A stretch of DNA of 64,000 nt from a virus, in IMG/VR virus record IMGVR_UViG_3300024346_010589, positions 1-64,000 of that record; one strand, 5' to 3'. Positions 36-55,100 of this stretch are shown piece by piece (position 1 is the first letter of the stretch; every line of letters starts with the position of its first letter). The notes under the pieces are model-generated. The model worked only from the letters and a program-made list of their open reading frames with translations. It had not been told where the DNA came from and did not search any database. The translations under genes were made by a program, and so were the position numbers.

Positions 36-1157
36 TTAGGACTGATAGATTATTTCTGAAAAATGTTTGATTAAAAATTGTATTAAATCTGGGTTGGCTT
101 CAAGCAGGTCGTTTAGCTTTGGCTCTCCATGAAGTTTAGCGGGGAATTCATGGCCTTCTTTTTTTAGAAGCTCCACAAAGTCTTCTTCTACTGATATCCA
201 TGCGCCTTTCTTGCTGATGTAGCCCCATAAGTATAGCATATCAATAAGCTCCTTCTCTACCCATATAGAGGTTCCGTTCTTGCGCCCATATTTAATTGGG
301 TACTCGAGCACATAATTGGTTTTTTCATTAGGGGATTTCTTAACGGTCATTTTTGCGACATGCCCAATTATTTTATTTTTGTCATGGTCTAATGGCGCAC
401 TAGGATTCTCTAGTATTAGGTCTTTTTTGAACCTAGGCTCAAATTCAAGTATGTAATTAGCAAAGTGAAGAAGCGCATTACCTCCTGTAGCGGTAGTTTG
501 ACGAACAGGAGCCTTGCTATATGGGTCAAGCTTGATGTCCGCGCGAACTTGGGATATGAATATAGCCATGTGACCTCTTTTAGCGAGGGCGATACTCATC
601 TTTTGCATAAACTTTGCGCCCAACAGTGCCCCACCGGCAATCTTATGAGAGTCTTCAAAGTTTTTCTTGAGGTCATCCTTCATTATTAACCCGTCCAAGG
701 AGTCTAGCACAAAGCAATATTTTATAGCCTCAGGAGTCCGCGCAATAAGAACTCTCATCAAATCTAATACAGTTTCATATATATTGGACTCAAAAACAAA
801 ACAACTACCTTGCTCCCACTCGTCCTCTTTGGACACGAACTTTATTCCAGACCTCTCTCTTACCTCTCCCGACAATCTGCCCTCCGCTTTTATATAAACA
901 GCCTTTGCTTTTGGCATTTTCAAAAAGTTCTTAGCAACCTCTAAGGCTTCAGAGGTCTTGCCCCCTTCGTTTATACCAACAAACCTATGGAGCCCAGGTC
1001 CAAGCCCTCCACCTAACTCAAAGTCAACTTTTAAGCTGCCGCAAGACACTTTATAATCTATATCTTCTTCGTAGTTGTAGTGGTGCTCTTCGTTTTGTTT
1101 TAAAAAGCTTTTGAGTGAATCTATTGATCCAGTTTCTGTTTCTGTTTTTTTACTCAT
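36..1157 (-). CDS. RecA/UvsX-like recombinase
   Basis: A 373-residue RecA-fold ATPase that should form filaments on single-stranded DNA and drive strand exchange in phage replication and repair. The Walker A motif GINEGGKTS lies at residues 61-69. A Walker B-type strand (CFVLDSLDG) is near 148-156, followed by the RecA-type segment around SQVRADIK and a Gly-rich loop (TATGGNALLHF). The length is close to bacterial RecA and T4 UvsX; the sequence reads as a divergent phage member. It overlaps the upstream hypothetical gene by 4 nt (ATGA), so the pair is probably translationally coupled, and both are likely transcribed from the sigma70-like promoter at 1493-1521. SSB is encoded far away on the other strand at 39196. 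Confidence 0.88.
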   Translation of the reverse strand: MSKKTETETGSIDSLKSFLKQNEEHHYNYEEDIDYKVSCGSLKVDFELGGGLGPGLHRFVGINEGGKTSEALEVAKNFLKMPKAKAVYIKAEGRLSGEVRERSGIKFVSKEDEWEQGSCFVFESNIYETVLDLMRVLIARTPEAIKYCFVLDSLDGLIMKDDLKKNFEDSHKIAGGALLGAKFMQKMSIALAKRGHMAIFISQVRADIKLDPYSKAPVRQTTATGGNALLHFANYILEFEPRFKKDLILENPSAPLDHDKNKIIGHVAKMTVKKSPNEKTNYVLEYPIKYGRKNGTSIWVEKELIDMLYLWGYISKKGAWISVEEDFVELLKKEGHEFPAKLHGEPKLNDLLEANPDLIQFLIKHFSEIIYQS

Positions 1158-1525: not shown

Positions 1526-2362
1526 TTAAATGAAGTATCTTGGCTGGTATTTGTAGGGGTGTGACACTGGGAGATTATTTGAAGTACCCCACTTGTGAGC
1601 TAAATATCCTTCCATCTTTTCTTGGACTGAAGAGTCTTCAAAGAATACGAGCTCGGCAATGTATCCATTTATTGGGGCAAGCTCTGACTCATTAGCTCCA
1701 ACATTAAGTGATGAAAATGGATTGGTGCCAATGTTCCCTGAATTTTCAATTTCTCCATCAATCCTGATGGTAGAATTACTTCCGTTAAATTTGACAACAA
1801 GTAAAAGATCCTCTCCCTCATTGGCGGTGTTTTGGGGTGTGGTGAGGCTGTTATTTGAACCTGCTCCACTGCCCCCTAATATTTGAATTGAACTCAAGTT
1901 ACCATTCCTCCTTACCGACATTCTATTACCAGGCCCACTATTTTCAGTGCCAGCAATAATGAAATCCTGCTGGTTATTTATATTGCATTTGAAAATTACG
2001 GCAAGGTATAACCCATTGGAGTTTTGATCGTATGCAAAAGAATTATTCTCAAGCACCTGAGCAGGTAAGTCCCAGGTTAGTACGTTTAAATTATTAAGTG
2101 TCTCTACGCCCGTCTTGGGTGCAACTTTATTGGCGGTTAATACATTTAAGTGGAATCCATTGTCTGACTTATCGTCAACTTGAGACACGATTCCAGCAGA
2201 TTCCGTTATAGTGGATATGTCGCTTGCGTCGTACCACGCAAATATTGAAGCTTCTTCTGGGGTCCAGCGATTTTGAAAATTTTTAAGCTCAGTGTTGGGG
2301 TAAAATTTAGTCTGGTATGCGGAAGTTTTACCGATGAGCCTGAAGCTTGATATTTCTCCCAT
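1526..2362 (-). CDS. LamG-like receptor-binding/tail appendage protein
   Basis: A 278-residue protein. Residues 1-35 form a short unique head. The rest is a LamG/concanavalin-like beta-sandwich module, with the common phage and bacterial openings IFAWYDASDIST and DDKSDNGFHL and the closing helix KMEGYLAHKWGTSNNLP. Such modules bind glycans and sit at the ends of adhesins. The same module, almost identical at DNA level, forms the C terminus of the large fibre protein at 46393-49704. The gene starts with a TAATG one-base overlap with the upstream structural gene at 2362. I read it as a second receptor-binding tip or an accessory fibre; virion location is inferred, not shown. Confidence 0.75.
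   Translation of the reverse strand: MGEISSFRLIGKTSAYQTKFYPNTELKNFQNRWTPEEASIFAWYDASDISTITESAGIVSQVDDKSDNGFHLNVLTANKVAPKTGVETLNNLNVLTWDLPAQVLENNSFAYDQNSNGLYLAVIFKCNINNQQDFIIAGTENSGPGNRMSVRRNGNLSSIQILGGSGAGSNNSLTTPQNTANEGEDLLLVVKFNGSNSTIRIDGEIENSGNIGTNPFSSLNVGANESELAPINGYIAELVFFEDSSVQEKMEGYLAHKWGTSNNLPVSHPYKYQPRYFI
1587..2244. repeat. LamG-module duplication, copy L
   Basis: These 658 bp are collinear and of equal length with 46451-47108, both read on the minus strand. Most stretches are identical or nearly so. Differences cluster in short windows that change the protein, for example around 1700-1730 and 1840-1950. The similarity stops sharply beyond 2244. Confidence 0.9.
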
Positions 2363-3078
2363 TACAAATCATGCTTTTCCTGCAACAAGCAAGTTCCTGT
2401 AAAATTAGAATCACCTGTGAAGGTAACCCTGCTGTACCTGAAATTGAATTCATCGTAATAGCTAAAAGTTGTATCGGCGGAGGACTCGATTGTTCTTGTT
2501 TCTATTGGCGTCCAGTTGATTTCATCCATACTAGCTTCAAATATAAAATTACCGGTAAAGGTATTATTGGCACCAGTATAGCAATGAGCTATATAACCGT
2601 GCTTAATGTAAGAGGGCGATTCGGCTGGGTGGAGGTCGATAGAATCGCTAGACTCGCCAAGACTGGAGCTGCTTAAGTTTTTATTAGCTTCAATACTGAC
2701 GTAGGTCTTTGGGTTGACGGTTGGAACTGGATTAGTGTCAGATACATCTACGTCGCCCACCTGTAGATTGGCGCTAACAAAATCTGTGTCGCTGGTCAAA
2801 TTTCTAATATCTAGATCGGTAGATTCAATATTAATAGATTGATTTTCACTGGTATAAATGTTTACGGAGTCTTCGTCTTTGTCTAAATTTACGTTGATCT
2901 GCGCATCTTCTATGTTTACAGTCAGTAAGTCTCCAGTATTTAAAGGTCTCCAGCCGCCAACCTCAGAATTAATTCCTTGGTCCCATATGTATTGTAAATT
3001 TACATCTGGAGAATGTGATGCTTGACTGCTTCCACTAAAAAGAGGATTATCGTATGTGCGTGTAGGTATTGTGCTCAT
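2362..3078 (-). CDS. structural protein, probable fibre or appendage
   Basis: A 238-residue protein with no family I can name. The N terminus (RTYDNPLFSGSSQ) and the low-complexity Asp/Asn/Ser/Thr composition resemble phage tail appendage proteins. A central region with alternating polar and hydrophobic residues (NIEDAQINVNLD) suggests beta structure. The last 100 residues look like a compact beta domain (FTGNFIFEASMDEINWTPIETRTI), similar in style to the small sandwich domains that measure or bind carbohydrate in fibres. It is coupled to the LamG-like gene by a TAATG overlap, so the two may form one appendage. A GTGTATACC element precedes it at 3102-3106. Confidence 0.65.
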   Translation of the reverse strand: MSTIPTRTYDNPLFSGSSQASHSPDVNLQYIWDQGINSEVGGWRPLNTGDLLTVNIEDAQINVNLDKDEDSVNIYTSENQSINIESTDLDIRNLTSDTDFVSANLQVGDVDVSDTNPVPTVNPKTYVSIEANKNLSSSSLGESSDSIDLHPAESPSYIKHGYIAHCYTGANNTFTGNFIFEASMDEINWTPIETRTIESSADTTFSYYDEFNFRYSRVTFTGDSNFTGTCLLQEKHDL

Positions 3079-3757: not shown

Positions 3758-4750
3758 TTAATACCCTGATGAATCGCTGCAATTTTGCATCTGATCGTAA
3801 ATCCAAGCATAAGTTTTCTCGAGTCCATCTTGTAGGCTGATTGATGGAGCCCATCCAAGAACCTCTTTGATCATTTCATTGTCGCTATTTCGACCACGAA
3901 CTCCTTGTGGCGCATCAAGATTGTAGTTTCTTTTTAATTTAATGCCTCCAATGCCTTCGGCTATATCAACCAGCTGATTGATTGAAACCATTTCGTCGCT
4001 GCCTAAATTCAATGGACGAGTGTCGCCTTTTTTCCACATCAAGTCCATTCCGGTTATGCAATCGTCGATATACATAAAAGAACGAGTTTGTTCGCCATCG
4101 CCCCAGATTTCAATTTCATGATTGCCGCTCATCTTAGCGTCAATAACTTTGCGGCAAATAGCTGCTGGAGCTTTTTCGCGGCCTCCGCGCCATGTGCCAT
4201 AAGGGCCATAAACATTGTGGTATCGACAGACCCTAGAGTCAATATTAAAGTCTTTGCCGTAGTAAGAAGTTAAGATCTCGCTAAAGAGTTTCTCCCAGCC
4301 ATATCCATCTTCCGGATTTGCCGGGTATGCAGTGTGCTCTTTTAAGCCCTGGGAGGCCGCATCTCTAATGTCGGACTGAATCTCTTGAGGGTAAATGCAG
4401 GCAGAGGAGCTATAGAGTATTTCTTTTACTCCATTGTCTCTAGCCGCCATAAGCATATGCGCCTGAATTAAAACTGATTCCATACAAAGAGCATGATTAT
4501 TTTGAATGAAACCCATGCCACCCATGTTGCAGGCAAGATTGTAGATTCGCTCAACACCTTTTGATAGATTATAGCAATGGTGCTTTTCCCCAAGATCACA
4601 GTCAAAATGATTTTCAGCAGCATCAAAAGTTTGATACCACTCTTCTGATGGTTTAATATCGGCAGCAATAACTTCGTGCCCTTGAGCTAGCAAATCTTTA
4701 ACTAAATAACCGGCAATAAAGCCGCCTGCTCCTCCTACTAATATTTTCAT
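3758..4750 (-). CDS. GDP-mannose 3,5-epimerase family protein
   Basis: A 330-residue extended short-chain dehydrogenase. The NAD-binding motif GGAGGFIAG lies at 6-14. The segment CNMGGMGFIQ is near 74-83, and SSACIYP carries C118. Y150 and K154 form the YxxxK pair, and K193 lies in GGREKAPAAICRK. These correspond, at near-constant offset, to the catalytic Cys145, Tyr174, Lys178 and Lys217 of the plant GDP-mannose 3,5-epimerase that makes GDP-L-galactose and GDP-L-gulose. Family assignment is strong; the exact product is inferred. It is the last gene of the glycan island and complements Gmd and Fcl at 31550-33543, which use the same donor, GDP-mannose. It overlaps the upstream methyltransferase by 4 nt. 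Confidence 0.85.
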   Translation of the reverse strand: MKILVGGAGGFIAGYLVKDLLAQGHEVIAADIKPSEEWYQTFDAAENHFDCDLGEKHHCYNLSKGVERIYNLACNMGGMGFIQNNHALCMESVLIQAHMLMAARDNGVKEILYSSSACIYPQEIQSDIRDAASQGLKEHTAYPANPEDGYGWEKLFSEILTSYYGKDFNIDSRVCRYHNVYGPYGTWRGGREKAPAAICRKVIDAKMSGNHEIEIWGDGEQTRSFMYIDDCITGMDLMWKKGDTRPLNLGSDEMVSINQLVDIAEGIGGIKLKRNYNLDAPQGVRGRNSDNEMIKEVLGWAPSISLQDGLEKTYAWIYDQMQNCSDSSGY

Positions 4751-5313
4751 TTTTTTGTTAATGAATATTGAAATTTAAAGATTTCAAAATTTTCTATTTC
4801 ATCAAAATAACATTCCAAAAATGTATCTACCGCTGGTATGATCCCGAAATCAAGCAGTTTAATTTGAGCGTCATCGTCTTGGTAGGCATTTCCGCATAGA
4901 AATCCGCCGGGTTTTAATTTGCGCCACCAGTTCTCTAAATCTTTTTGAGCAAAAGAATATGAATGGTTGGCATCTAGGTAGATCCAGTCAAGCGATTCGT
5001 CTGCGAAATCATAAAGAGCATCAATCGAATATTTTTCTATGACATTAACTCTTGAATCAGTGTAAAATTTATCCTTCACTTCTTGCTTGATGACGTCTAT
5101 TTCTTCTTGAGGAATAGCATGCCATCTAGCTGGAATATCCATTATGCTAACCCATGGGTCAACCAAATAAAGCGCTGATGGTTCCATTTTTATAATAAAC
5201 TCAGAAAAATCTCCCCTAAAAACACCTATTTCTGCGCATTTATCGCCGGGCTTTATTTTTTCCAATAGAGAGAGTCTTGAGTCGTCTAGTTCAAATTTGT
5301 ATGGTAATGGCAT
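4747..5313 (-). CDS. SAM-dependent methyltransferase (Methyltransf_24-like), copy A
   Basis: A 188-residue class I methyltransferase. The SAM-binding motif I is KCAEIGVFRGDFS near residues 25-37. Motif II acidic strands are LYLVDPW and LDWIYLDANHSY, followed by the KPGGFLCG loop. This family often sits in polysaccharide loci and may O-methylate sugars. A clear paralogue lies at 6528-7070 with the same architecture (CVEVGVWKGDLS, DWIYIDGNHSY, KSGGYLCGDDY). In copy A the DDY of the other copy is replaced by NAYQDDD. The substrate is not known. A GTGTATAATATAT element occurs about 55 bp upstream of the start, inside the previous gene. Confidence 0.75.
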   Translation of the reverse strand: MPLPYKFELDDSRLSLLEKIKPGDKCAEIGVFRGDFSEFIIKMEPSALYLVDPWVSIMDIPARWHAIPQEEIDVIKQEVKDKFYTDSRVNVIEKYSIDALYDFADESLDWIYLDANHSYSFAQKDLENWWRKLKPGGFLCGNAYQDDDAQIKLLDFGIIPAVDTFLECYFDEIENFEIFKFQYSLTKK

Positions 5314-5318
5314 TTTGT

Positions 5319-5912
5319 TTAAAATTTATAATTATATTGCTTTATGTCTTGTTTATATATATTATACACAATATTCTTGCTATCTTCTATGTATAATTCT
5401 CTATAGTCTTTATTGTTTGTTGAGTTTGTTTTTGGTAGGTTCTTCATTGGGAGGTTTAAGCGAGAGCGAATACTGAAGTAATCATGCTGTATGTTCTCGT
5501 GCCGACCAATAAAATCAACAGGCTCATCTAAGAAATAAGAGAACGGTTGAAAGTGAATCCCAGACTCATAGGAGCCATCTTCTCTTTTCATTAGTTGCTT
5601 GAAGTCGCCTATGTGATTAACAAAACCGCTGAAGTCTAGTTTGTTAGCCAGGTCAGCTATAATACTGTTTCTTTTGTACCATCTATGGCCCGGAACTAAT
5701 TTTTGAAAATACCTATAAGCAGAAGCAACCCTATCGTATGGATTTCGAATAAACGTAAAAGAAAAATATCCTTGGCTGATGTAATCAAAATGACAAGAAG
5801 CTGGACTATGCCCAGAGAAACCCACAGAAGTTAATTTTAAGTCAAGATTAATTGAACTACCAGCACACTTAGGAATATGCACGAATACGCACTTCAACTT
5901 TTCTGAAATCAT
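5319..5912 (-). CDS. sulfotransferase (Sulfotransfer_2 type), first of four
   Basis: A 197-residue PAPS-dependent sulfotransferase. The 5'-phosphosulfate loop VFVHIPKCAGSS is at about residues 9-20 and the 3'-phosphate-binding segment FIRNPYDRVASAY near 54-66. Between and after them are the family's aromatic-rich helices. Enzymes of this type transfer sulfate to hydroxyls or amines of carbohydrates. Three more sulfotransferases lie at 17373, 18872 and 19662. No PAPS synthase is visible, so PAPS would have to come from the host. The gene is flanked by a methyltransferase and a WcbI-like gene, consistent with sugar modification. Confidence 0.85.
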   Translation of the reverse strand: MISEKLKCVFVHIPKCAGSSINLDLKLTSVGFSGHSPASCHFDYISQGYFSFTFIRNPYDRVASAYRYFQKLVPGHRWYKRNSIIADLANKLDFSGFVNHIGDFKQLMKREDGSYESGIHFQPFSYFLDEPVDFIGRHENIQHDYFSIRSRLNLPMKNLPKTNSTNNKDYRELYIEDSKNIVYNIYKQDIKQYNYKF

Positions 5913-5916
5913 TATT

Positions 5917-6531
5917 TTATTGGTCGAATGGGTACCCAGAGTTAAGGTATGTTTTGTAATCTTTTTTGGAGAAATAATCCCATCCGGTTAATTTGCATAG
6001 ACCCAAGATAACTTCAAGAAAATAAAAAGAATTTGGATGAACTTTATATCCATCTTTCAAAATTTTTGTTTGACCATGAATTTTATCTTTATTTTTTAAG
6101 ATTATGTTGTAACCGCAAATGTTGATATTATATTTCCTTGACCTATCTTTCATTCCCATAAGTTTAGATTCGTCTTTTGGGTCATAAAAGTAATCGCTGA
6201 AACTGATTACTTGGCAGGCTTTAGTTTCGTAGGATTGTATTTTTTTGTAATTGTGTATCTTTGAGGTCTCTTCTTTTATGGGTTGGTAGATGATATGTGT
6301 AGCAGACTCCAGAAAGTCAATGGATTCTAAATTATTATATATACTATTGCTGAGCTGATCTCCCCATATGTTTTTGTCACGAAACATTGGTAGGGGACGC
6401 TCCCCGAGAATGCAATCGGGACATATATACTTGCAGGAGGATAGGAAATTTAATTTCCCTAGGTACCAGCATAAAGCTTGAGCTTGACAGTTGCCAACTA
6501 CAGCGACTTTGGTCGAGCCATCATGATTCAT
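5917..6531 (-). CDS. WcbI-like polysaccharide biosynthesis protein
   Basis: A 204-residue protein opening with VAVVGNCQAQAL (residues 9-20), the signature nucleotide-binding loop of the WcbI family found in capsule loci. Known members bind CoA or related adenosine phosphates and are linked to acetylation of capsule heptose. The middle carries the family-like HIIYQPIKEETSK and the C terminus has YKVHPNSFYFLEVILGL. It overlaps the methyltransferase upstream by 4 nt and lies 4 nt from the sulfotransferase, so these three genes form one coupled modifying unit. The reaction here is inference; it could act as an acyl- or sulfo-transfer accessory. Confidence 0.6.
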   Translation of the reverse strand: MNHDGSTKVAVVGNCQAQALCWYLGKLNFLSSCKYICPDCILGERPLPMFRDKNIWGDQLSNSIYNNLESIDFLESATHIIYQPIKEETSKIHNYKKIQSYETKACQVISFSDYFYDPKDESKLMGMKDRSRKYNINICGYNIILKNKDKIHGQTKILKDGYKVHPNSFYFLEVILGLCKLTGWDYFSKKDYKTYLNSGYPFDQ

Positions 6532-7070
6532 TTCTTCTGGAAAACAAATTGATCTTTAATTAATTCCGAATGATTAATTTCAGATTCGCGCTCTTGCCTG
6601 AACTCGTCAACAGCCTGCACAATCCCGAATTGCAATTCTTCAACTTGATATTTTCCTTCGATATAATCATCGCCGCACAAATAACCTCCACTCTTAAGCT
6701 TTGGCCACCAGCCATTAAGGTCTTCTTTTACAAATTCATAGCTGTGATTGCCGTCAATATAAATCCAATCCACAGAACCATCTTTAATATCAGCCATTGC
6801 ATCAACGGAAAATTTTCGTATTAACTTAACCTTTTTGTTGAAGAAGAACCTTCTTTTTACCGTGTTGTAAATATCATCTAAGTTTTTTTGCTCAGTATTG
6901 TGAAGGCGGCCTTCTACATCGTTGATAGTTTGCCAGGGGTCAATTAAGTAAAGCTCAGAAATTGGAAGCTGAGCTATATGCCTAGACAAATCACCCTTCC
7001 AAACTCCAACCTCCACACAAACTGCGTCGTTTTTAATAAATTGCAATACTCCTTTGTTTCCTAAGCTCAT
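6528..7070 (-). CDS. SAM-dependent methyltransferase (Methyltransf_24-like), copy B
   Basis: A 180-residue paralogue of the protein at 4747-5313. It has CVEVGVWKGDLSRHI as SAM motif I, LYLIDPWQTI, SVDWIYIDGNHSYEF and LKSGGYLCGDDY. The shared order, including the AVD(E/T)F segment near the C terminus, shows a duplication that has since diverged widely. Two related methyltransferases suggest methylation at two different sugar positions. The gene is 2 nt from the upstream glycosyltransferase and overlaps the WcbI-like gene by 4 nt. Confidence 0.75.
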   Translation of the reverse strand: MSLGNKGVLQFIKNDAVCVEVGVWKGDLSRHIAQLPISELYLIDPWQTINDVEGRLHNTEQKNLDDIYNTVKRRFFFNKKVKLIRKFSVDAMADIKDGSVDWIYIDGNHSYEFVKEDLNGWWPKLKSGGYLCGDDYIEGKYQVEELQFGIVQAVDEFRQERESEINHSELIKDQFVFQKK

Positions 7071-7072
7071 TT

Positions 7073-7777
7073 TTAGTCCTTATATATTATTGTTTTTTCA
7101 CATTCAGGTAGTTTTGGTATTTTAAAACCATCCTTCCTCATATTATACACTAAATTTTTTGTCATTTTGCCGGCATCCAGAGATTCAGCCATGTTGATTT
7201 GATTACTACTGGTGGCGTATAGATCTTTGACTGGCTTGAAGTTCATTATCGGATAAAGCTTTAATAGTGGGTAGTGCTCTTCTAATCTTTCGTTCAGGTA
7301 CAAATATTCGATCACTTCTTTTTTGATTAGTTGGGGTTGAAATATCTGATGGTGATTTTTCTTTTTGATTAAATTGTGGCCGCCGATGTTTGTTGTGCCT
7401 TTTAGATGGCTTTTGTGGGCGTCTGCATTTTTTGTAAACATAAAGCCGCCAATATTCGGAGCGTTGAATTGATAAAGGTCTTTTATTATTTGTTTGTTTT
7501 TAAAATCCAATATGTATTTGTCATCTTGCGCCCACCATACAAATTCGTCAGGATTAACCACAGAAAGTAAAGTCCGGATGGTTGGCTTAACCGCGCTATC
7601 GGTCTGTAATAGTTTGATTTTATCGGCGCCGTATTTATCTACTAAATGGTTGGGCTTGATTTTGTTCCACGGAACGTAAAAAACAAAAGGATTACCAGGC
7701 CAGCATTTAAAATATGTGTGCAGGACGTACTCCATGATCGGCATGTTTCGATCAAAAGTAAAACAAATAGCTTTCAT
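7073..7777 (-). CDS. putative glycosyltransferase (GT-A-like)
   Basis: A 234-residue protein beginning with a beta strand (MKAICFTFDRNMPIMEY) and containing an acidic, aromatic motif FVWWAQDDKYIL near residues 100-111. That motif resembles the metal-binding DxD of GT-A glycosyltransferases. No membrane span is present. The C terminus is basic. I cannot assign a CAZy family. The role is suggested mainly by the motif and by the surrounding transferases. A GTGTATAATAT element lies inside the gene at about 7144-7153 on the minus strand. Confidence 0.5.
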   Translation of the reverse strand: MKAICFTFDRNMPIMEYVLHTYFKCWPGNPFVFYVPWNKIKPNHLVDKYGADKIKLLQTDSAVKPTIRTLLSVVNPDEFVWWAQDDKYILDFKNKQIIKDLYQFNAPNIGGFMFTKNADAHKSHLKGTTNIGGHNLIKKKNHHQIFQPQLIKKEVIEYLYLNERLEEHYPLLKLYPIMNFKPVKDLYATSSNQINMAESLDAGKMTKNLVYNMRKDGFKIPKLPECEKTIIYKD

Positions 7778-11982: not shown

Positions 11983-11990
11983 TATCAGTA

Positions 11991-15308: not shown

Positions 15309-15314
15309 GATATA

Positions 15315-31541: not shown

Positions 31542-31549
31542 AATTAATG

Positions 31550-33543: not shown

Positions 33544-33546
33544 AAA

Positions 33547-33855: not shown

Positions 33856-33871
33856 AGTTGTTGTTGAGTTA

Positions 33872-35393: not shown

Positions 35394-35399
35394 AAAAAA

Positions 35400-36368: not shown

Positions 36369-36381
36369 ATCAAGTTAAGAG

Positions 36382-37509: not shown

Positions 37510-37513
37510 TGTA

Positions 37514-45639: not shown

Positions 45640-46396
45640 GATAGACAACTCCATAGGGCCTTCGTTATTCAACAGGGACGAAAACGGTTTACTAAAAAAC
45701 ATACAATACGTCTTTAACGAAGATGGCTCCGTTAACTGGAGAGCGATGATAAAAGAAGAACATTTATTCCCAAACAAACTTTGGTTTCAGGCTAGAAATA
45801 AAGACATGCCAAGATCAATAGAAGGTTTAAAAGATAACCAACTTTTAATAAAACTTAGCGGAATCAAAGAGCTTGCCAGGCTAAGGGGGTTCTCAAGCAT
45901 ATCCTACTCTATGGATAAGTGTGAAGATGATCATGTTGCAGTTACTTGTAGTACTGTTTTTATACCCAATTACGAAACAGGAAACGATCCAGTTTCATTT
46001 CAAGACATGGCAAATGCAAGTACAAAAAACACAAGTAGTTTTGCTACCAAATTTCTAGAGACTATAGCGTGCAACAGGTCTTTTGTCAGATGCGTTAGAA
46101 ACTTCCTAAATGTACATATTGTTGGAGACGACGAGATTGACAAATCAAACCCAAATGGACCTTCCCATCAAGATTCTTCTAAAAAAAGTGACCCATTTAG
46201 TCCTGTAACCACATTGAAGAATAGGGTGAAAAGCATTCTTTCCGTTGAATCGTTTGAAGAGTTTAAGCCTTTTATCAAAAAATGCTGGCAAGAAAAAAAA
46301 GAAGGAATCTACCAAAATAAAAATATAGAATCCTGGAAAGACTGGGACGACATCTCAGTCAAAGACGCCAAGATACTTATAAGCTTAATATCTTAA
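45605..46396 (+). CDS. possible ssDNA-annealing protein (Rad52/Sak-like)
   Basis: A 263-residue protein. The region IKELARLRGFSSISYSMDKCEDDHVAVTC suggests an extended beta sheet, and KFLETIACNRSFVRCVRNFLN recalls the A-x-x-R-A-x-x-R helix of Rad52/Sak-type annealing proteins. The C-terminal third is separate and basic. This is a pattern guess; the protein may be something else. It is last in the rightward operon, which also carries ssb, and its stop codon shares the TTAA with the fibre gene's stop on the other strand. Confidence 0.4.
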   Translation: MVKAKKIETESEIDNSIGPSLFNRDENGLLKNIQYVFNEDGSVNWRAMIKEEHLFPNKLWFQARNKDMPRSIEGLKDNQLLIKLSGIKELARLRGFSSISYSMDKCEDDHVAVTCSTVFIPNYETGNDPVSFQDMANASTKNTSSFATKFLETIACNRSFVRCVRNFLNVHIVGDDEIDKSNPNGPSHQDSSKKSDPFSPVTTLKNRVKSILSVESFEEFKPFIKKCWQEKKEGIYQNKNIESWKDWDDISVKDAKILISLIS

Positions 46397-46400
46397 GCTT
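46381..46400. terminator. palindrome spanning both convergent stop codons
   Basis: AAGCTTAA, TATC, TTAAGCTT: a perfect 8-bp stem with a 4-base loop. It contains the TAA stop of the plus-strand gene (46394-46396) and the TAA stop of the minus-strand fibre gene (46393-46395). No T-tract follows, so it may be a two-way pause or RNA-stabilising hairpin rather than a strong terminator. Confidence 0.5.
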
Positions 46401-49400
46401 GTGGTGTCACAAACTTGTATGGATGCCCTTGTGGCAGTTTACTAGACGTGCCCCACTTGTGAGCTAAATATCCTTCCATCTTTTCTTGGACTGAAGAGTC
46501 TTCAAAGAATACGAGCTCGGCAATGTATCCATTGATTGATTGATCCTCTCCCTCATTGGCTCCAACATTAAGTGATGAAAATGGATTGGTGCCAATGTTC
46601 CCTGAACTTTCAACTTCCCCGTCAATCCTGATACTAGAATTACTTCCGTTAAATTTCACAACAATTAAAAGATCCTCTCCCTCATTGGCAGTGTTTGGGC
46701 CTGAGCCAAGGGCGATATTTGAACCTGTTCCACTGCCCCCTAATACTTGAATTGAATTGAAGCCAACTGTCCTCCTTGCAGACATTCTATTACCAGGCAC
46801 AGTACTTTCAGTGCCAGCAATAATGAAATCCTGCTGGTTATTTATATTGCATTTGAAAATTACGGCAAAGTATAATGCCTTGGAGTTTTGATCGTATGCA
46901 AAAGAATTATTCTCAAGCACCTGGGCAGGTAAGTCCCAAGTTAGTACATTTAAATTATTAAGTGTCTCTACGCCCGTCTTGGGTCCAACTTTATTGGCGG
47001 TTAATACATTTAAGTGGAATCCATTGTCTGACTTATCGTCAACTTGAGACACGACTCCAGCAGATTCCGTTATGGTGGATATGTCGCTTGCGTCGTACCA
47101 CGCAAATAAAGAAGCCACAGTGGGACTCCATGGTTTAAATATAAACTCTCTAGTCTTAGTATTTCCGCTAGCAGATCTAACATAAAGAGAGTATCCATCG
47201 CTTGGAGGTATTTCTGTAAATAAAAACGACACATCCTTGGTGCTGGCTTTTCCAACTACCATTGCCCCTAAATAAGACATCGTTTCGTCTCCACCATCAT
47301 ACTCAATACCAAATGTAACTATCGGCGCATATTCATGTTCGAATGGAAATTTAACTTTTATGTAATTCTGATTGGCGGCTCTCATTCCATCAAGATTCAC
47401 AATGGTAATTTGATCATTCTGTATTAACTTTATTGGGTCTTCAGGGTTTCCGCCTTCAGCTTCAGCTATGATTTTATTAGCGTCCGCTAAAACTCCAGTT
47501 CCAATTGTATCAAATGGCAATATCTGAAAAAATCCAGGAGGATTATCTCCGTCTTCATTGTATGAGAAATTCACTCCAGATTGTAATACCTCTATAGTTC
47601 CATCTCCTGGTTGATCTTCTTTAAAGGATTTGTATAAATTGTCGTCAGAAATAGAAAATCCATAAGAGTCTCCTGTATAGAGGTTTGCCTGGATTAAATT
47701 GTAATTTGTTTGGTCTCCCTGCTGCAACCCAGACTCATAATAATGATCTTCAAAGTTGTATTGAAAATTTATATCTAAACTCCCTGATAATCCAGTTAAT
47801 TCATTTATTTCTACTGGTCTAGATTCAGCTTTAAATCCTGTGGTATATATTAAATAATCATCACTATCTCTCTTTATGTCTAATTTTAAATGAGCCTCTC
47901 TTGTTTTTTCGTATCCACTTCCTGCATATTTATATATATGAGTTCCGCTTGAGTTTGTCCAACACCAATACTCCCCTACATCATTTATTTCCAGCCTTGA
48001 GCTTTCCGTTCCTCCAGTTATGTTTGTTATCTGTATGTCTCTACTTTGCTCCTGATCTATGTTTATACTTTCAAGGAATGATTGATTGCTAAAATCCTCA
48101 GAGAACAAACTAGTCATAACCCCAACCTTGTTCCGCCTTAACCCTAGCCATCCAATCCCTCCGCTAATTTCAGAAATCTTAGTCAATTGGGATTTATTCA
48201 TTATCACCGCAGGCATGCGCCCTATCGAATTAAGATAAGAGGCTCCCTGCTCGTAACTCTTTTGAAAATTAACTCCATCATGATACTGTATATCATAACT
48301 ATTCGGGTTGTTTACAGGGATAGAATATATTCCCCTAGTCTCCAGTATTCCAGATTTTATTTCTTCGTTACTAGCGCATTTAAATTTATTTTCATAAGGG
48401 TCGTAATATCCATAGTTGTAAATTCCTCCTGATATTACGCCACCTCCATTATCCTTTGAAACGTATCCAGTATACTTAGGAAAAGATTCAGCCCAATATT
48501 CTCCCGCTCCACTTCCATATGTTCCAGATCCAGTAAATCCTACTCCAGTTATAGTTGCTACATCTTTTAATTCTCCAGTATTAAAACCCTCCTGAATTGG
48601 CAGTGAATTATCGTATGTATATTCAATCCCAGTATTATTATAATTGTAAGTCGCATCAAAGGCAACCCCGCTATCATAAAATATTTCACCATCATAACCA
48701 AGTACTGAACCTGTTGTCTGACCTGTTCCTGTCACACCGTAGCAAGTTGTCATTAAATCACTGCCAGTGTTGTAATTCAAATCAAATGTATAGCGATATG
48801 CATCGCCACCAGATATTCTGTAGCCATTAATGTTTCTTATTGCTGGGTTGTAATCTATCAGTAATGGTTGCTCAGGGTTCCCCACAAGCCCGCTAAACCC
48901 AACTCCTGTAATGTATTCTTGAGGCTTAAAAAATCCAGATACATCCCCATAATAATATAAATCCCTAGGAACTGACATTACGTAATTGTTAGCGCCTGGC
49001 GTTAGCTCTATTGATGCAAAACCATTATTACCTGTCTCTGATCTTATAGCTTTACTTTTATCCGGAAAAGTACCATTTTCGAATCCAGTAAAATTATAAA
49101 GCTCTAAATACCTAAGGCCGTTTGCTATGCTTGATCCATTTTCTCCAGTTAATCCACTATAACTGCAATCAAAAACTCCCATATCAACTCCGGTTGATAA
49201 AATAGAATAATTAGGCATCGGGTTCTGCGTGGTTAATATTGCCCTATTCTTGTTGCCTGTAAAATCTGTTAATATTATCTCTACAGAATAATTTCTACTA
49301 TAGCTATCTCCTGTTATTTCATAGTTTAAAGTATTACCCAATAGGCCTGACTCAGAAAACACTTTAGTTCCATTATCTATAGCGTTTTGTCCTGTTAAAT

Positions 49401-49704
49401 TTCCGTAGTTTTCATATATATTTACATCGAAACCACTTATGTATACATTCTTCTCTATGTCTGATGGGTTTTTATATATGTAGTCGTTCCTTGGATCGGT
49501 TACCTCCCATTCTAAATTCAGGCTTGAGGTCTGAAAGTTCTGCTTATAATAAGATGTTGAGTCAGAAGACGGTTGCAAGTCCTTTACATCTTGAACTTCG
49601 CTAGATGAATTTAAATATATATTCGAAATCCTAAAAGTTTTTCCGTATTTTAACCTGGGATTAGATAGAGGTATTTGAACTTGACTGGAATTATTGAATG
49701 ACAT
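46393..49704 (-). CDS. tail fibre/adhesin with C-terminal LamG-like tip
   Basis: A 1103-residue virion protein. The N-terminal 870 residues are beta-rich with many Gly/Asn/Thr and short repeats of the G-x-G-F-(S/T)-G type (for example TGVGFSGLVG, ITGVGFTGSGTYG), as in elongated fibres that follow J proteins. The last 230 residues, beginning at SLFAWYDASDISTITES, are a LamG-like module nearly identical to that of the gene at 1526. The start is TAATG-coupled to the J-like gene, so it most likely attaches to the tail tip. It binds host surface glycan by inference. Confidence 0.75.
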   Translation of the reverse strand: MSFNNSSQVQIPLSNPRLKYGKTFRISNIYLNSSSEVQDVKDLQPSSDSTSYYKQNFQTSSLNLEWEVTDPRNDYIYKNPSDIEKNVYISGFDVNIYENYGNLTGQNAIDNGTKVFSESGLLGNTLNYEITGDSYSRNYSVEIILTDFTGNKNRAILTTQNPMPNYSILSTGVDMGVFDCSYSGLTGENGSSIANGLRYLELYNFTGFENGTFPDKSKAIRSETGNNGFASIELTPGANNYVMSVPRDLYYYGDVSGFFKPQEYITGVGFSGLVGNPEQPLLIDYNPAIRNINGYRISGGDAYRYTFDLNYNTGSDLMTTCYGVTGTGQTTGSVLGYDGEIFYDSGVAFDATYNYNNTGIEYTYDNSLPIQEGFNTGELKDVATITGVGFTGSGTYGSGAGEYWAESFPKYTGYVSKDNGGGVISGGIYNYGYYDPYENKFKCASNEEIKSGILETRGIYSIPVNNPNSYDIQYHDGVNFQKSYEQGASYLNSIGRMPAVIMNKSQLTKISEISGGIGWLGLRRNKVGVMTSLFSEDFSNQSFLESINIDQEQSRDIQITNITGGTESSRLEINDVGEYWCWTNSSGTHIYKYAGSGYEKTREAHLKLDIKRDSDDYLIYTTGFKAESRPVEINELTGLSGSLDINFQYNFEDHYYESGLQQGDQTNYNLIQANLYTGDSYGFSISDDNLYKSFKEDQPGDGTIEVLQSGVNFSYNEDGDNPPGFFQILPFDTIGTGVLADANKIIAEAEGGNPEDPIKLIQNDQITIVNLDGMRAANQNYIKVKFPFEHEYAPIVTFGIEYDGGDETMSYLGAMVVGKASTKDVSFLFTEIPPSDGYSLYVRSASGNTKTREFIFKPWSPTVASLFAWYDASDISTITESAGVVSQVDDKSDNGFHLNVLTANKVGPKTGVETLNNLNVLTWDLPAQVLENNSFAYDQNSKALYFAVIFKCNINNQQDFIIAGTESTVPGNRMSARRTVGFNSIQVLGGSGTGSNIALGSGPNTANEGEDLLIVVKFNGSNSSIRIDGEVESSGNIGTNPFSSLNVGANEGEDQSINGYIAELVFFEDSSVQEKMEGYLAHKWGTSSKLPQGHPYKFVTPQA
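46451..47108. repeat. LamG-module duplication, copy R
   Basis: Partner of 1587-2244 with the same length and orientation. The coding differences are clustered, for example NESELAPINGY in copy L against NEGEDQSINGY here. The flanks are unrelated, so the module was copied as a unit. Confidence 0.9.
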
Positions 49705-52700
49705 TATGTTAATACTGAATAAACTCTTGCGTAATAAGTACCGTTCTCAACTACTCTTTCGCTTCTAAATTCGTGCGATATGGTTTCAGCAGTCTTATCG
49801 TTAGGCACTTCGAATGTTGCCAGTAGAATGTTTTCGTTAAAGAATTGCACTCTGTAACTTGCCGCAGCAACAACCATTGACCAAGTAGCCTTTACTCCAT
49901 ATGGTATATTGTCGCCAATATCTTCGCTCAATATTTCTACTGTTATTTCGGAAGGTGGGTCAATGCTATTTTCTGTAAATATTACCGGTGACTTTGGTTG
50001 CGTTAGTGATAAATCTCTTTCTATATTATCAAACTTGTCTTCGTTGTATTCTAATCCTTGAATATTATATACGCCATTAGAAGATTCCGCTATGTTTAGT
50101 ATTTTATATTTCTTGGGCTCTGCAAGGTTGACGGAATCTTCCATCATGAAAGTAGTACCCTTATTGTCTTTTAAATTAAAAAACGACTCATCAGCTTGTT
50201 TTTCCAAAATGTATCCAAGTTTCGTATCCCCACTCAATGTAACCCAATCTCCATGTATTGAATTGTTCTCAGAACCACTAACTGCTATAAAAATTTCTCC
50301 AGGGAACTCATTATCTGCCGCTATGTCTAATGTGCCTAGAGGGCATATATGATCAGTTTCTAAGTTTCCTTCTGACGCCAGGTCTGACTCTATTTCTTTT
50401 GCCACCCTAGGGTATCCATCAAGCCAGCTAAAAAATGTTATTTCGTTACTGTCGCATTCTTGCGGTTGATGCCATATAAATTTTTCAGGTATCGGAAGTT
50501 CTAAGTAATATCCACCTATCCACGCCATCTCATCTTCTGGCAACATAGCCTGAACCATTACTTGATCCATTTCGTTGTTTATGGTTGCAAGTATTCCTCC
50601 ACGCTCTTCTGCATCTTTTAGGGCTTCAACCCAAGTGTACTCACCAGTTACATGACTATATGGGTTATTAACCAACCTTAGTTTAGTGTCGTTCTCATAA
50701 ATCTTATTGACCGTGAACTGTTTTATTTGCTCGGCCCTCATGTCTTCTATTTGCTGGTCGGTCACTTCCCCTAAATCATCCAATGATTCAATTGTTTGAT
50801 TTCCTGAGGTGTTATAAATTGTTATTTGCTTCCATGTGTCCTTATCATCTTCTTCTATTATTGTTCTTATTGGGTAATCGACCATTAGTTCCGCAGTTTT
50901 TCCGTCTCCGCTTATTTCAACATCAACTATTTTACCAGCAAACCTACCTATAGTTCTTTTATTGTCTAAAACATCTATTACATCTCCTGGCTTGAGATAA
51001 GATCCAAGCGAGCTGGTAACGAAAGACAATAGTTCTGTTTCCATGTTTGCGCCCTTGACTAAAAAGTCAGCAGCTCTTTTTGCTTGAGCTTGAGAAGTTA
51101 TTCCAAACCCATCTATGGTTTGCTCTATGATATTATTCTCTTGTATGGATTTTCTATCTTCAGAATGTTCCATTTTTGCTCTGAACATATTGTACTTATC
51201 TACGTACTTTATCTTACATGAATTAGTTCTGCTTGTTTTCGGCGTACTAGAATAAGAGAATCCTTCTTTGGATATATTATTGTTAGCAAACAACATTACT
51301 GAATCTTTTTTCTGATCCTGAAAGAAGTTGATTGAGCCCCCTGACCAATAAGCAAAAGCTCTAAATATCGCAGCAAATTCATTTATTAACTTAAAGGCAT
51401 TTTGGGAGTTCATTAAAAATGCATTCAATGTGTACCTTGGCTCAACCAATGGATAGTCTATTTCTACAGCGCACTCCCCTGACTCCTGAGCTGGGTTTCT
51501 CTCTAGTATTATTTTCTTTCCAGATAATGTTGTTCCAATTATTTTAATAGATTCGCATATTCCATGATCGTAGTAAATGGCTAGTTTTTTATTCGTGTGA
51601 TTATATTCGCTTTGAAAATCCGCATCATCATAAGGGCCCTCTGCGGTTATTGATATGGTATTTTCTCCGGACAAAGAGAATTTTCTTTTAGGAGTTTTCG
51701 AGCTGTAACCAGTCGGAATAAACTCATCGCAATATTTCGCTATCCTGTAAAGAGTCCACCTGTCTATATTTTCGGGCTTTATTCCAAATTTACCTACTCC
51801 ATATCTTTTGCTTGATATTAAATCATACAAACACCAGGCCGGATTATCGGTCCAAAGTTTTGCTTCTTCAGGAACCGGATCATCTTTAGATGCTTGGCCT
51901 TCGAATCTTCCATCCCAGTTTCCATTATACCGCCTTGTTTCCGGGTTGTAATTACTTGGGACTGCTACTTTCTTTAGCTTTAGGTGGTAATTTCTGGTGG
52001 GAATAGAGGATACGTCTTTAGCGTTAACTCTTGTTCCTATAACAACTGAGTTAGGATAACTCAACTGAACCGGTGTTATTTCAGTTACCCCAGACAATAA
52101 AAAAGTCTCCTTGTATCTAGCGGCCTGCTCTCCCTCTTTTACTGGATTCCTTTCTCTATTTAATTTGTAAACCTTTACTATCCTATCCTTTCTAGATGGA
52201 TTCTTTGGTAGATAAATTTTAACATCTTTCCTGTATGAACTCGTGGCTACGCCATAAATGTAAATATCGGTAGAGAAAGGAGTCTCTCCTTCGTTTCCGT
52301 ATTTTATTCTAAACTTCGCTTTGTTTGGCCAAATCTCTCCTGCGTTTTCTATTTTTGTTCCAATATTCCATCCATCATCAGGGTTTATAAAGCCTTTTAT
52401 AACTGTCCAAGCCGCCAGCATTGCAAGCTCCCACGCAGCCGCTGCAGCGTTTTCTCCAGCGATAGCTCCTGCACCTGCGGCTAATTGCGGAACCATTGCA
52501 GCTGTAGCCATGAGCGCGAATTTAATCGCTGTAGCTGCATAATAGGCCGCTAACAATCCGTGGTAGATCTGGTATGCAGACATTATCCAAGTCCAAAGTT
52601 TTCCTATTTTGTATGTTATCTCTATTGTGTCTCCCTCGTATATATATGATAATTGGTCTATCTGAATTGTAACGTACATCTCTTCGACTAATGGATTAAT

Positions 52701-55100
52701 AACCGTGTGACTCACATAGTATTCTTCCTCTGAAGACCTAATTACTGCCTGGTCTGAGGTTCCAGCTAATAAAAATATTTTAACACGTAAATCGTCCCTC
52801 TCTTCTCCTTCTTCTCCTGGACCTCCTGGCCCATTTTTTACATCCTTAACTCCGTTTATTTTGATGGATTGCCATAGCCCTTGTATTTGCCCTGGAGTCA
52901 ATTGAACCTCAGAAGCCCAGTCTTTAGCACTTACCCCTACGTCGTCTGTATTTTGCAATATATAAATAGGGTCATTTGTTGTTATTTTCTTGTCGTCACT
53001 CCTATCTTTAGCTGAAAGCTGTTTTGTGAAATCTTCAAAACCAAAAGGCCTAGTAAGCTCTGGATTTATCTGTATTATTTTTCCTGGAGAATAATCTCCT
53101 GTTATTTTATATATTGGTGATGTTGTATTGTTTTCGTCCGACAATTTTTTCATCAAGACCTTGCCTTGTTGCCCATTGTAGGTCGCCTCTTCATCAAAAA
53201 GACCCAAGAAATCACCTGCGTCAGCACCCATTTGGTAATACTCAACCCCTCCATCATGTCTGGCAGACCTTATTAGGTCTCCATCTTCATAAAACTTATC
53301 TTCGTCTATGTTTACGTACTCTCCATAGAAAGTCTGGTATCCATTAATGAGCGGGGTTGTTGTATAAAACTCAGCAGCATCACCTGCCCCCACGTAAACT
53401 ATTTCAGTTTCACTTTCGCTATAATTATGGTTCGCATGCCTACTGAAAGGATTAGCTAGGCTGGTATTTATTTTGTATGTATATTTTTCTCCAGCACCCT
53501 CTTGATATGAAATATAATCTCCCTGCTTGTATGTTTTGTTTTTTTCAAAAGGTTGAAGATTATTTGCGTTTTCTATTATGTTATTAGGATTTATTTCTCT
53601 TGGTCCGTAAAGTGGCGCGTTAATATCTTTGGTGTTTGCTGAGAATAAATATTGAGGGTCAAGCAGTGATTGATCATTTGTACCAATAACGCCGCCTCTG
53701 CTTTGTCCTATGTCTATGTCAAACTCATTTATATTATATGCGTCCTTAGGTGGAACTGTTCCCAGGTTTACTTCTTTTACTTGTGCGTCATCCAATATAA
53801 CCCCCTGAAGATAATCGTCATCGGGATTTCTTAAAAATTTAGGGTCGCTAGGGTCTGTTATTTTTTTTGATTCTTTATTGAATACTAAAGTTTCTCCGTT
53901 TTTATCACAAAGCCCATCAATTGGACCCTCGCAGGCCAAGTCTACAGCTTTATATACAGATGTTGACTCTAACTTGAACCATCCAACTCCATCATTTTTA
54001 CTACCATTTCTCCACCTCTGTCCAACTGGTATAGGAAAAAACCCTTCAAATGATTTATCTTTTCCGGCTATATATTCTATCTCTCCGTCTTCCGCAAAAG
54101 ATATTGGATAAAATTCTTTTTCTTTAACCTCGTCATCAGGCAGTGGCACGCTTTGAAGGCAAACATAAGAACTTGTAGATGCGTCCGATTCTTTTACCTT
54201 ATAGGTGTTGTCCGCTTTTGATACAGTGGTCCAGTTTCCATCGACTCCTTTCACCCCCATTCTATCTATATTGACACCCTTTAACCAGTTATAGTTGTAA
54301 TAAAAATAACCCGCAACTGCATTGCCAGTTTTCTCCTGTTTCACTGTCGTTACTGACTGCCTATAAGTGTCAGCATCTGTATACTGACCATAAATTCCAT
54401 CATTTGCTCCAAAATAAGTTGTTGGTAGGTTATTTTTTAAAAATTGATAAGCTGGATCAGAAGCCTTGAAGTCACTACTTCCATCAAATAAATTCAACGC
54501 GAATGCAGAAAACAGACAACCCTGAGGCAAGTAGTATTTACTATAACTAGGAACGAGGCTGTATAATCCTTTTTTGAAATTAAAAATTTGCCCCTTTTCC
54601 GAATCGTAATCATAATTGACAATACATGAAGATATAACATTGCTTCCAATTTTCATTCTGCCATAACCAAGAGGCACAGTTGCCCCCTGCTGGTATCTAT
54701 TATCGGACCCATTGAATAAAAACGATTGAGTTTGCGCAACTAGAGTGCTGTCGTCTCTTTCCATTGCTTCCGATATTTTCTTTGAAATATACATGCTTGC
54801 GGCGGTCTGAATTGCCATCATGAATAAGCTGCCAACGAATCCTGATCCTTGCGGCATAGGAAATATATGTATATCTTCTTTTGTTGGCAATACGTAGTCA
54901 ACTTGATCTATAAAGTTGTCGCTTTTCTCTTTTTTTATACCATAATGTATTCCTGCTTTTTCTTTCTTATTAAGGTATGATTCTATTTCTCTATCGTTAG
55001 CGAACAGTGCAGACACAGCTTCAGACGGAGAGCTAACGTCTAGCTTCCATTCCTTACCGAACTTTTTTCCAAGTTCTCCGTACAAAAATACCCTTTTCAT
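49704..55100 (-). CDS. tail-tip host-specificity protein J with fused I-like domain and lectin insert
   Basis: A 1798-residue protein. Residues 1-90 look like the beta-grasp tail assembly protein I (VFLYGELGKKFGKEW, then VSSPSEAVSALFAN and EDIHIFPMPQGSGF). The J region follows, with TVPLGYGRMKIGSNVISSCI and DNPAWCLYDLISSKRYGVGK. Residues about 850-910 are an Ala-rich hydrophobic stretch. Residues about 1485-1630 form a C-type-lectin-like domain (YTWVEALKDAEERGGILATI, MAWIGGYYLE, LGYILEKQ). The end, from about 1705, is an FN3-like domain. It forms the tip that meets the receptor. A GTGTAAATATA element and a GGAAAAAAGG RBS precede it. Confidence 0.88.
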   Translation of the reverse strand: MKRVFLYGELGKKFGKEWKLDVSSPSEAVSALFANDREIESYLNKKEKAGIHYGIKKEKSDNFIDQVDYVLPTKEDIHIFPMPQGSGFVGSLFMMAIQTAASMYISKKISEAMERDDSTLVAQTQSFLFNGSDNRYQQGATVPLGYGRMKIGSNVISSCIVNYDYDSEKGQIFNFKKGLYSLVPSYSKYYLPQGCLFSAFALNLFDGSSDFKASDPAYQFLKNNLPTTYFGANDGIYGQYTDADTYRQSVTTVKQEKTGNAVAGYFYYNYNWLKGVNIDRMGVKGVDGNWTTVSKADNTYKVKESDASTSSYVCLQSVPLPDDEVKEKEFYPISFAEDGEIEYIAGKDKSFEGFFPIPVGQRWRNGSKNDGVGWFKLESTSVYKAVDLACEGPIDGLCDKNGETLVFNKESKKITDPSDPKFLRNPDDDYLQGVILDDAQVKEVNLGTVPPKDAYNINEFDIDIGQSRGGVIGTNDQSLLDPQYLFSANTKDINAPLYGPREINPNNIIENANNLQPFEKNKTYKQGDYISYQEGAGEKYTYKINTSLANPFSRHANHNYSESETEIVYVGAGDAAEFYTTTPLINGYQTFYGEYVNIDEDKFYEDGDLIRSARHDGGVEYYQMGADAGDFLGLFDEEATYNGQQGKVLMKKLSDENNTTSPIYKITGDYSPGKIIQINPELTRPFGFEDFTKQLSAKDRSDDKKITTNDPIYILQNTDDVGVSAKDWASEVQLTPGQIQGLWQSIKINGVKDVKNGPGGPGEEGEERDDLRVKIFLLAGTSDQAVIRSSEEEYYVSHTVINPLVEEMYVTIQIDQLSYIYEGDTIEITYKIGKLWTWIMSAYQIYHGLLAAYYAATAIKFALMATAAMVPQLAAGAGAIAGENAAAAAWELAMLAAWTVIKGFINPDDGWNIGTKIENAGEIWPNKAKFRIKYGNEGETPFSTDIYIYGVATSSYRKDVKIYLPKNPSRKDRIVKVYKLNRERNPVKEGEQAARYKETFLLSGVTEITPVQLSYPNSVVIGTRVNAKDVSSIPTRNYHLKLKKVAVPSNYNPETRRYNGNWDGRFEGQASKDDPVPEEAKLWTDNPAWCLYDLISSKRYGVGKFGIKPENIDRWTLYRIAKYCDEFIPTGYSSKTPKRKFSLSGENTISITAEGPYDDADFQSEYNHTNKKLAIYYDHGICESIKIIGTTLSGKKIILERNPAQESGECAVEIDYPLVEPRYTLNAFLMNSQNAFKLINEFAAIFRAFAYWSGGSINFFQDQKKDSVMLFANNNISKEGFSYSSTPKTSRTNSCKIKYVDKYNMFRAKMEHSEDRKSIQENNIIEQTIDGFGITSQAQAKRAADFLVKGANMETELLSFVTSSLGSYLKPGDVIDVLDNKRTIGRFAGKIVDVEISGDGKTAELMVDYPIRTIIEEDDKDTWKQITIYNTSGNQTIESLDDLGEVTDQQIEDMRAEQIKQFTVNKIYENDTKLRLVNNPYSHVTGEYTWVEALKDAEERGGILATINNEMDQVMVQAMLPEDEMAWIGGYYLELPIPEKFIWHQPQECDSNEITFFSWLDGYPRVAKEIESDLASEGNLETDHICPLGTLDIAADNEFPGEIFIAVSGSENNSIHGDWVTLSGDTKLGYILEKQADESFFNLKDNKGTTFMMEDSVNLAEPKKYKILNIAESSNGVYNIQGLEYNEDKFDNIERDLSLTQPKSPVIFTENSIDPPSEITVEILSEDIGDNIPYGVKATWSMVVAAASYRVQFFNENILLATFEVPNDKTAETISHEFRSERVVENGTYYARVYSVLT

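What the first reader, a model, noticed from the sequence alone, without database searches (positions are those of the whole stretch)
1587..2244. Near-identical LamG modules 45 kb apart with clustered protein changes
A 658-bp module is shared by a short stand-alone protein (1526) and the end of the 1103-residue fibre (46393). Long identical blocks sit beside short blocks dense in amino-acid changes (for example PGNRMSVRRNGNLSSIQ against PGNRMSARRTVGFNSIQ). That suggests recent copying or gene conversion plus selection on exposed loops. The short copy could be a donor that refreshes the fibre tip, a decoy, or a second receptor-binding protein.
Basis: seen in the sequence. Interest (0 to 1): 0.65.

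Follow-up and report, generated by a model that had tools for sequence, protein, structure and literature searches.

The report
Matched lectin tips at two loci
A marine phage carries the same lectin-like, probable receptor-binding domain on its tail-fibre tip and on a small separate protein about 45 kb away; related phages carry unrelated domains but again mostly the same one at both places, and two relatives have the two variants swapped, pointing to a recombining, matched pair of adhesins.

Summary
In detail: 684 bp (1568-2251 and 46432-47115) are 91% identical, in a 278-aa protein (S) and at the C-terminus of a 1103-aa fibre (F) encoded just downstream of a gpJ-like tail gene. It is the only long-range repeat in the 82-kb record.

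Relatives show more than a recent duplication. (1) Genome G002 has the two variants in exchanged places: 23 of 24 informative interior sites show the swap, flanking sites show locus orthology, and no site shows one-way homogenisation. (2) The module is a cassette with conserved end motifs. Near-isogenic relatives (99%) have it replaced by an unrelated LamG (class 2) at S and at F, and a 103-kb relative has class 3 at both (97% identical). (3) Within-genome S-F divergence (dS 0.09-0.13) far exceeds backbone divergence (0.014), so both loci switched class separately to matching classes.

Best reading: a two-locus, class-matched lectin adhesin whose cassettes move by homologous recombination, between genomes and between loci. 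No reverse transcriptase, invertase or integrase was detected. What S does is inferred: most likely a second adhesin; decoy, or donor, remain open. Positive selection is suggested, not proven; loop enrichment failed.

The parts
1526..2362 (-). S: stand-alone 278-aa protein, ~39-aa N-terminal segment plus LamG/ConA-like module
   Evidence: ORF; AF2 pLDDT 82, residues 1-32 low; intact in the S-locus copies read
1568..2251 (-). LamG module copy in S (684 bp)
   Evidence: 91% identical to 46432-47115
1670..2084 (-). Minimal swapped segment in S (alignment columns 282-696)
   Evidence: 23 swap-type sites vs 1 orthology-type site; flanks orthology-type
2220..2242 (-). 5' anchor of the cassette in S (TTTGCGTGGTACGACGCAAGCGA, encodes FAWYDASD)
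   Evidence: class 1/class 2 boundary here; MAG contig breaks here
1586..1624 (-). 3' anchor of the cassette in S (encodes QEKMEGYLAHKWG)
   Evidence: class 1/class 2 boundary
46393..49704 (-). F: 1103-aa distal fibre; stem aa 1-~850, LamG tip aa ~865-1097
   Evidence: stem family found in about 20 contigs with or without the tip
46432..47115 (-). LamG module copy at the fibre tip
   Evidence: identical in record G004
46534..46948 (-). Minimal swapped segment in F
47084..47106 (-). 5' cassette anchor in F
   Evidence: similarity of G005/G006 fibres to the window stops at 47084
46450..46488 (-). 3' cassette anchor in F
   Evidence: similarity of G006 resumes at 46484
2362..3078 (-). 238-aa gene immediately upstream of S (its stop overlaps the S start codon); F5/8-type-C-like, weak
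   Evidence: conserved beside S in relatives
36..1157 (-). RecA-family recombinase; marks the downstream flank of the S locus
   Evidence: Pfam RecA E 8e-12; conserved flank in relatives
49704..55100 (-). gpJ-like central tail / host-specificity protein directly upstream of F
   Evidence: phrog_31 E 5e-105

Best explanation
The repeat is a mobile lectin-type receptor-binding cassette present twice in the genome: as the tip of the distal tail fibre (F) and as the C-terminal domain of a small second adhesin (S) encoded beside recA. Shown by sequence: whole cassettes are replaced at each locus across short conserved end motifs; segments cross between the two loci; and in three module classes both loci carry the same class. 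Inferred: exchange is by ordinary homologous recombination (phage RecA or co-infection), because no site-specific recombinase or reverse transcriptase was found; S is made, binds the same kind of cell-surface glycan as the fibre tip, and most likely works as an accessory adhesin on the virion, so that selection keeps the two domains matched in class while the variable stretches diversify.
For: Swap between W and G002: 33 orthology-type sites, all but one in the flanks, 23 swap-type sites all in columns 282-696, 0 concerted sites. Class concordance: class 1 at S and F in W and G002, class 2 at S (G009) and F (G006) of one sample, class 3 at both in the single 103-kb contig G010, 97% identical over 693 bp. 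The S-F pair is the only long far repeat in W, and is present in G002 and G010. Clean cassette replacement: G009 vs G002 99.1-99.6% identical on both sides of S, G005 vs G002 98.8% along the stem; boundaries at shared end motifs. Timing: backbone G002/G009 median dS 0.014 and W/G002 0.409, against module dS 0.045-0.14. Lectin fold. F sits beside gpJ. S-locus proteins of relatives join a conserved N-terminal domain to interchangeable C-terminal domains. No RT, resolvase or tyrosine recombinase in three genomes.
Against: Concordance is not universal: G011 has a LamG fibre tip but a repeat protein at S, and G001 has class 1 at S with a tip-less fibre. Only about seven backbones could be scored (permutation P about 0.01). 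Class 2 S and F come from two contigs of one sample. G002's fibre allele and the window's S allele are each seen in one assembly. No evidence that S is expressed or is in the virion. Class 2 and class 3 pairs show no excess of replacement changes comparable to class 1.
Confidence: 0.6

Rival explanations
1. Two-allele switch: each genome keeps two different versions of the domain, and reciprocal exchange between S and F changes which one is displayed on the fibre, working like the alternative-tip switches of Mu and P1 but by homologous recombination between direct repeats.
For: W and G002 carry the same two allele types in opposite places with no homogenised sites; breakpoints lie in long identical blocks; one contig, G008, joins the fibre stem to the S-locus tail through a class 2 module.
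Against: Only one swapped pair is known; class 2 copies keep locus-specific differences; G008 switches inside a 107-bp identical block and ends 442 bp into the stem, so it may be an assembly chimera; W and G002 backbones differ by dS 0.4, so the swap need not be a within-genome event.
Confidence: 0.2
2. S is a matched decoy or superinfection-exclusion protein: a free lectin with the specificity of the fibre tip that masks receptors or debris during infection.
For: Explains class matching and the position of S outside the tail operon, beside recA.
Against: No signal peptide is apparent by eye in S; relatives put repeat or glycine-rich adhesin-like proteins at the same locus; closest PHROG is a virion structural protein (phrog_10356, E 3e-15), though that match is to the LamG domain.
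Confidence: 0.15
3. S is mainly a donor archive that refreshes the fibre tip by gene conversion.
For: Module dS between lineages and loci (0.045-0.14) is lower than most backbone genes, so modules move often.
Against: S is an intact gene that overlaps its upstream neighbour's stop codon and has its own conserved N-terminus; no one-way homogenisation was seen; the two loci of the near-isogenic pair changed class separately rather than by a fresh copy.
Confidence: 0.15
4. Assembly artefact: collapsed or switched repeats in metagenome assemblies produce apparent swaps.
For: Several contigs end in or at the module (G005, L065, L066, L128, and MAG contigs C4 and C81).
Against: All four sequences (W_S, W_F, R_S, R_F) carry private differences; shared blocks flanking the swap are at most 106 bp; R_S recurs in two other samples and W_F in a second record; G010 carries both copies in one contig.
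Confidence: 0.06

Closest known systems
Modular receptor-binding-protein exchange / domain mosaicism in tailed phages (Smug et al. 2023, PMC10684548)
   Same: Recent swapping of distal binding domains on a conserved stem, with breakpoints at domain edges.
   Different: That survey describes fragment sharing between otherwise unrelated proteins; here one domain class occupies two distant loci of the same genome and alleles cross between the loci.
Carbohydrate-binding-module decoration of lactococcal 936 siphophages (Hayes et al. 2019, PMC6669499)
   Same: Several virion proteins besides the RBP carry carbohydrate-binding modules, and combinations are not random.
   Different: The section read reports module classes that partly correlate with RBP group, not near-identical copies of one module shared with the fibre tip and exchanged with it.
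T-even gp38 adhesin exchange across conserved glycine-rich motifs (from memory)
   Same: Conserved coding motifs flank variable segments and could serve as homology for swapping.
   Different: One locus only; unrelated fold.
Mu G-segment / P1 C-segment invertible tail-fibre tips (from memory)
   Same: Two alternative tips kept in one genome, with switching of which one is on the fibre.
   Different: No invertase detected; copies are direct repeats 45-47 kb apart; S is itself an intact gene.
Diversity-generating retroelements
   Same: A second copy of a variable receptor-binding region.
   Different: No reverse transcriptase; changes are not adenine-specific; both copies are coding.
Phage LamG / ConA-like lectin domain proteins (e.g. 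cyanophages KBS-S-2A, S-CBS4, Pseudanabaena phage Pam2; PHROG 10356)
   Same: Same domain family, 25-32% identity, and same fold.
   Different: In 33 other LamG-positive phage records no comparable far-apart near-identical pair was found.

Membership tests
LamG / ConA-like jelly-roll domain | Jelly-roll fold | tested here: met
   AF2 model pLDDT 82; Foldseek to lectin-like domains, best E 3e-8 (PDB) and 1e-16 (BFVD)
LamG / ConA-like jelly-roll domain | Pfam Laminin_G_3 above gathering score | tested here: not met
   19.1 and 18.3 bits vs cut-off 27.6; filed by fold, not by the Pfam model
Diversity-generating retroelement | Reverse transcriptase | tested here: not met
   PF00078 no match in G000, G002, G010; controls ring
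Diversity-generating retroelement | Adenine-specific changes | tested here: not met
   All 12 change types present
Invertible tail-fibre switch (Gin/Cin type) | Serine recombinase and inverted crossover sites | tested here: not met
   PF00239 none; copies are direct repeats
Gene conversion / concerted evolution of paralogues | Copies within a genome more alike than orthologues between genomes | tested here: inconclusive
   True at the level of module class; not true within class 1: 0 concerted sites, 23 swap sites
Modular receptor-binding-protein exchange | Domain replaced on an otherwise near-identical backbone | tested here: met
   G002 vs G009 at S, G002 vs G005 at F
Modular receptor-binding-protein exchange | Domain binds the host receptor | not testable with these tools
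   needs binding assays

The most novel reading that the evidence does not exclude
A recombinase-free tropism switch: the phage keeps two alleles of one lectin class at two loci, and reciprocal homologous exchange over about 45 kb changes which allele is on the fibre tip, while new classes spread through the population as matched pairs.
Probability: 0.2. Interest if true: 0.8.

Novelty: new variant of a known kind. Interest (0 to 1): 0.62.

Why it matters
Phage receptor-binding domains are known to be swapped one locus at a time. A rule that two distant proteins of one genome change to the same domain class implies a partner or function that forces matching, and gives a natural, sequence-readable test of what accessory lectins do for marine phages. 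Short-read assemblies tend to break at such repeats, so the pattern may be overlooked elsewhere.

Tried and rejected
DGR, invertase and integrase: searched, none found. One-way gene conversion as the sole process: rejected for class 1, no concerted sites. Loop enrichment of changes: tested, not significant. Positive selection in windows: suggestive only. G040 looked like a second far-apart LamG pair but is a 3-kb end overlap of the contig at 94%. Neighbouring LamG pairs in G036, G045, G047, G038 and G039 are old paralogues with little DNA identity. G008 fibre-to-S junction: kept as ambiguous. MAG contigs C4/C81 break at the S cassette edges but do not show which class S carries there. No PDB sequence relative.

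Full report
What is there. The window is bases 1-64,000 of an 82,063-bp virus record. The stand-alone gene S (1526-2362, minus) and the fibre gene F (46393-49704, minus) share 684 bp at 91% identity without gaps. This is the only long far repeat of the record. F follows a gpJ-like tail protein (phrog_31, E 5e-105), so F is a distal tail-fibre-type protein (inference from position and architecture). S lies between a 238-aa gene whose stop overlaps the S start, and a 110-aa gene followed by recA. The shared module folds as a LamG/ConA jelly roll (pLDDT 82).

Pattern of differences. Of 230 codons, 35 differ with and 17 without an amino-acid change, clustered along the gene. dN/dS is 0.59 across the module (S vs F of the window) against 0.09 for the fibre stem and 0.01 for recA between W and G002. 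The replacement-to-silent ratio differs from the stem's at P = 5e-8. The windows above 1 are small and not significant, and changes are not enriched in loops of the model. So relaxed or diversifying evolution of the module is shown; positive selection on exposed loops is not.

Swap. G002 (75 kb, another sample) has both genes. In a four-row comparison (W_S, R_S, W_F, R_F, where R is G002) the flanks group by locus. In columns 282-696, 23 of 24 two-against-two sites group W_S with R_F and R_S with W_F, and none group the copies of one genome. The exchanged segment is 415-607 bp. The R_S allele type recurs at the S locus of G001 and G003 from other samples, and W_F recurs in G004, 99.97% identical to the window over 27 kb. 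All four sequences have private differences and the identical blocks around the swap are at most 106 bp, so assembly switching is unlikely but not excluded.

Cassette replacement and class matching. Fibre stems related to the window's at 93-96% in DNA carry a different LamG (class 2, about 40% identical in protein) in G005, G006, G008 and in a contig of a MAG labelled uncultured Flavobacteriaceae. The S locus of G009, from the same sample as G006, also carries class 2. G009 is 99.1-99.6% identical to G002 on both sides of S, and G005 is 98.8% identical to G002 along the stem, so only the cassette was replaced there. The boundaries coincide with DNA encoding FAWYDASD and KMEGYLAHKWG, shared between classes. 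A more distant genome, G010 (103,642 bp, one contig, stem 67% identical in protein), carries class 3 at both loci, 97% identical over 693 bp, 46.9 kb apart. Exceptions: G011 has a LamG fibre tip but an InlB-like repeat protein at S; G001 has class 1 at S with a fibre that ends at the stem and a further LamG on a third protein; G020 has LamG at neither of these loci, its LamG being on a third protein. Across seven backbones the concordance has a permutation P of about 0.01. In 33 LamG-positive phage records fetched as background there was no comparable pair.

Timing. Median dS is 0.014 between G002 and G009 (48 genes) and 0.409 between W and G002 (45 genes). S-F dS inside a genome is 0.125 (G002) and 0.089 (class 2 pair). 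The copies in each genome are therefore older than the split of the two backbones. Whichever lineage changed, it changed both loci in separate events to the same class; a fresh copy from one locus to the other would have left them nearly identical. That favours selection for matching over mere copying, with the caveat that class 2 S and F come from two contigs of one sample. Cross-lineage module dS (0.045-0.12) lies below the backbone interquartile range (0.229-0.647), so modules also move between lineages.

The S locus. In relatives found through recA, this position holds LamG proteins, InlB-like repeats, a 1207-aa glycine-rich protein, or nothing of note. Several of these join a conserved N-terminal domain (NHTGREL..RKLY..YDSGFRP) to interchangeable C-terminal domains, and one has the N-terminal domain alone. 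The window's own S has a different, short N-terminus. This is the design of an adhesin with a fixed anchor and a variable head (inference).

Mechanism and limits. No reverse transcriptase, serine recombinase or tyrosine recombinase is detectable in G000, G002 or G010, so homologous recombination across end motifs and shared blocks is the simplest mechanism. Whether S is in the virion, acts as a decoy, or chiefly donates sequence cannot be settled from sequence; I rank accessory adhesin first. G008 joins the fibre stem to the S-locus tail through a class 2 module, but switches inside a 107-bp identical block near the contig end and may be a chimera. In the MAG, contigs break at the S cassette edges, which shows repeat or polymorphism there but not the class.

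Relation to known systems. It works like modular RBP exchange (PMC10684548) combined with multi-protein carbohydrate-binding decoration (PMC6669499), and it fails the defining tests of DGRs and of invertible fibre switches. Class matching across two loci together with allele swapping was not found in the literature searched, which is a limited library.

Noticed in passing
window 3758-22756 and 29795-38392: Sugar-nucleotide and glycan genes in the phage: NAD-dependent epimerases, GDP-mannose dehydratase, UDP-glucose/GDP-mannose dehydrogenase, DegT aminotransferase and a NodZ-like fucosyltransferase, among many ~200-290-aa ORFs of unknown function.
   Followed up: partly
window 25627-26733: Papain-family cysteine protease with a GSGST-type repeat stretch that differs in length and arrangement between relatives.
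   Followed up: no
L037 2690-14791 (record 66690-78791): A 4033-aa ORF on the minus strand, function not examined; G002 and G010 have repeats of several hundred bp near their contig ends whose relation to this ORF was not checked.
   Followed up: no
L016 1-2241 (G001 around 42121-44361): A third LamG-bearing locus: an 853-aa open frame whose C-terminus is a LamG 51% identical to the fibre module, also seen in tip-less-fibre relatives G029 and G030 and as a 925-aa frame in G020.
   Followed up: partly
L306 (CAJQLD010000083.1): A 23-kb contig of a MAG called uncultured Flavobacteriaceae is 99.4% identical to phage contig G006 over 14 kb; a host hint, or a binning error.
   Followed up: partly
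G024 35897-36440 and 51661-52099 (loci L248, L249): A far-apart repeat pair (86-88%) in another relative, unrelated to the S position; not identified.
   Followed up: no
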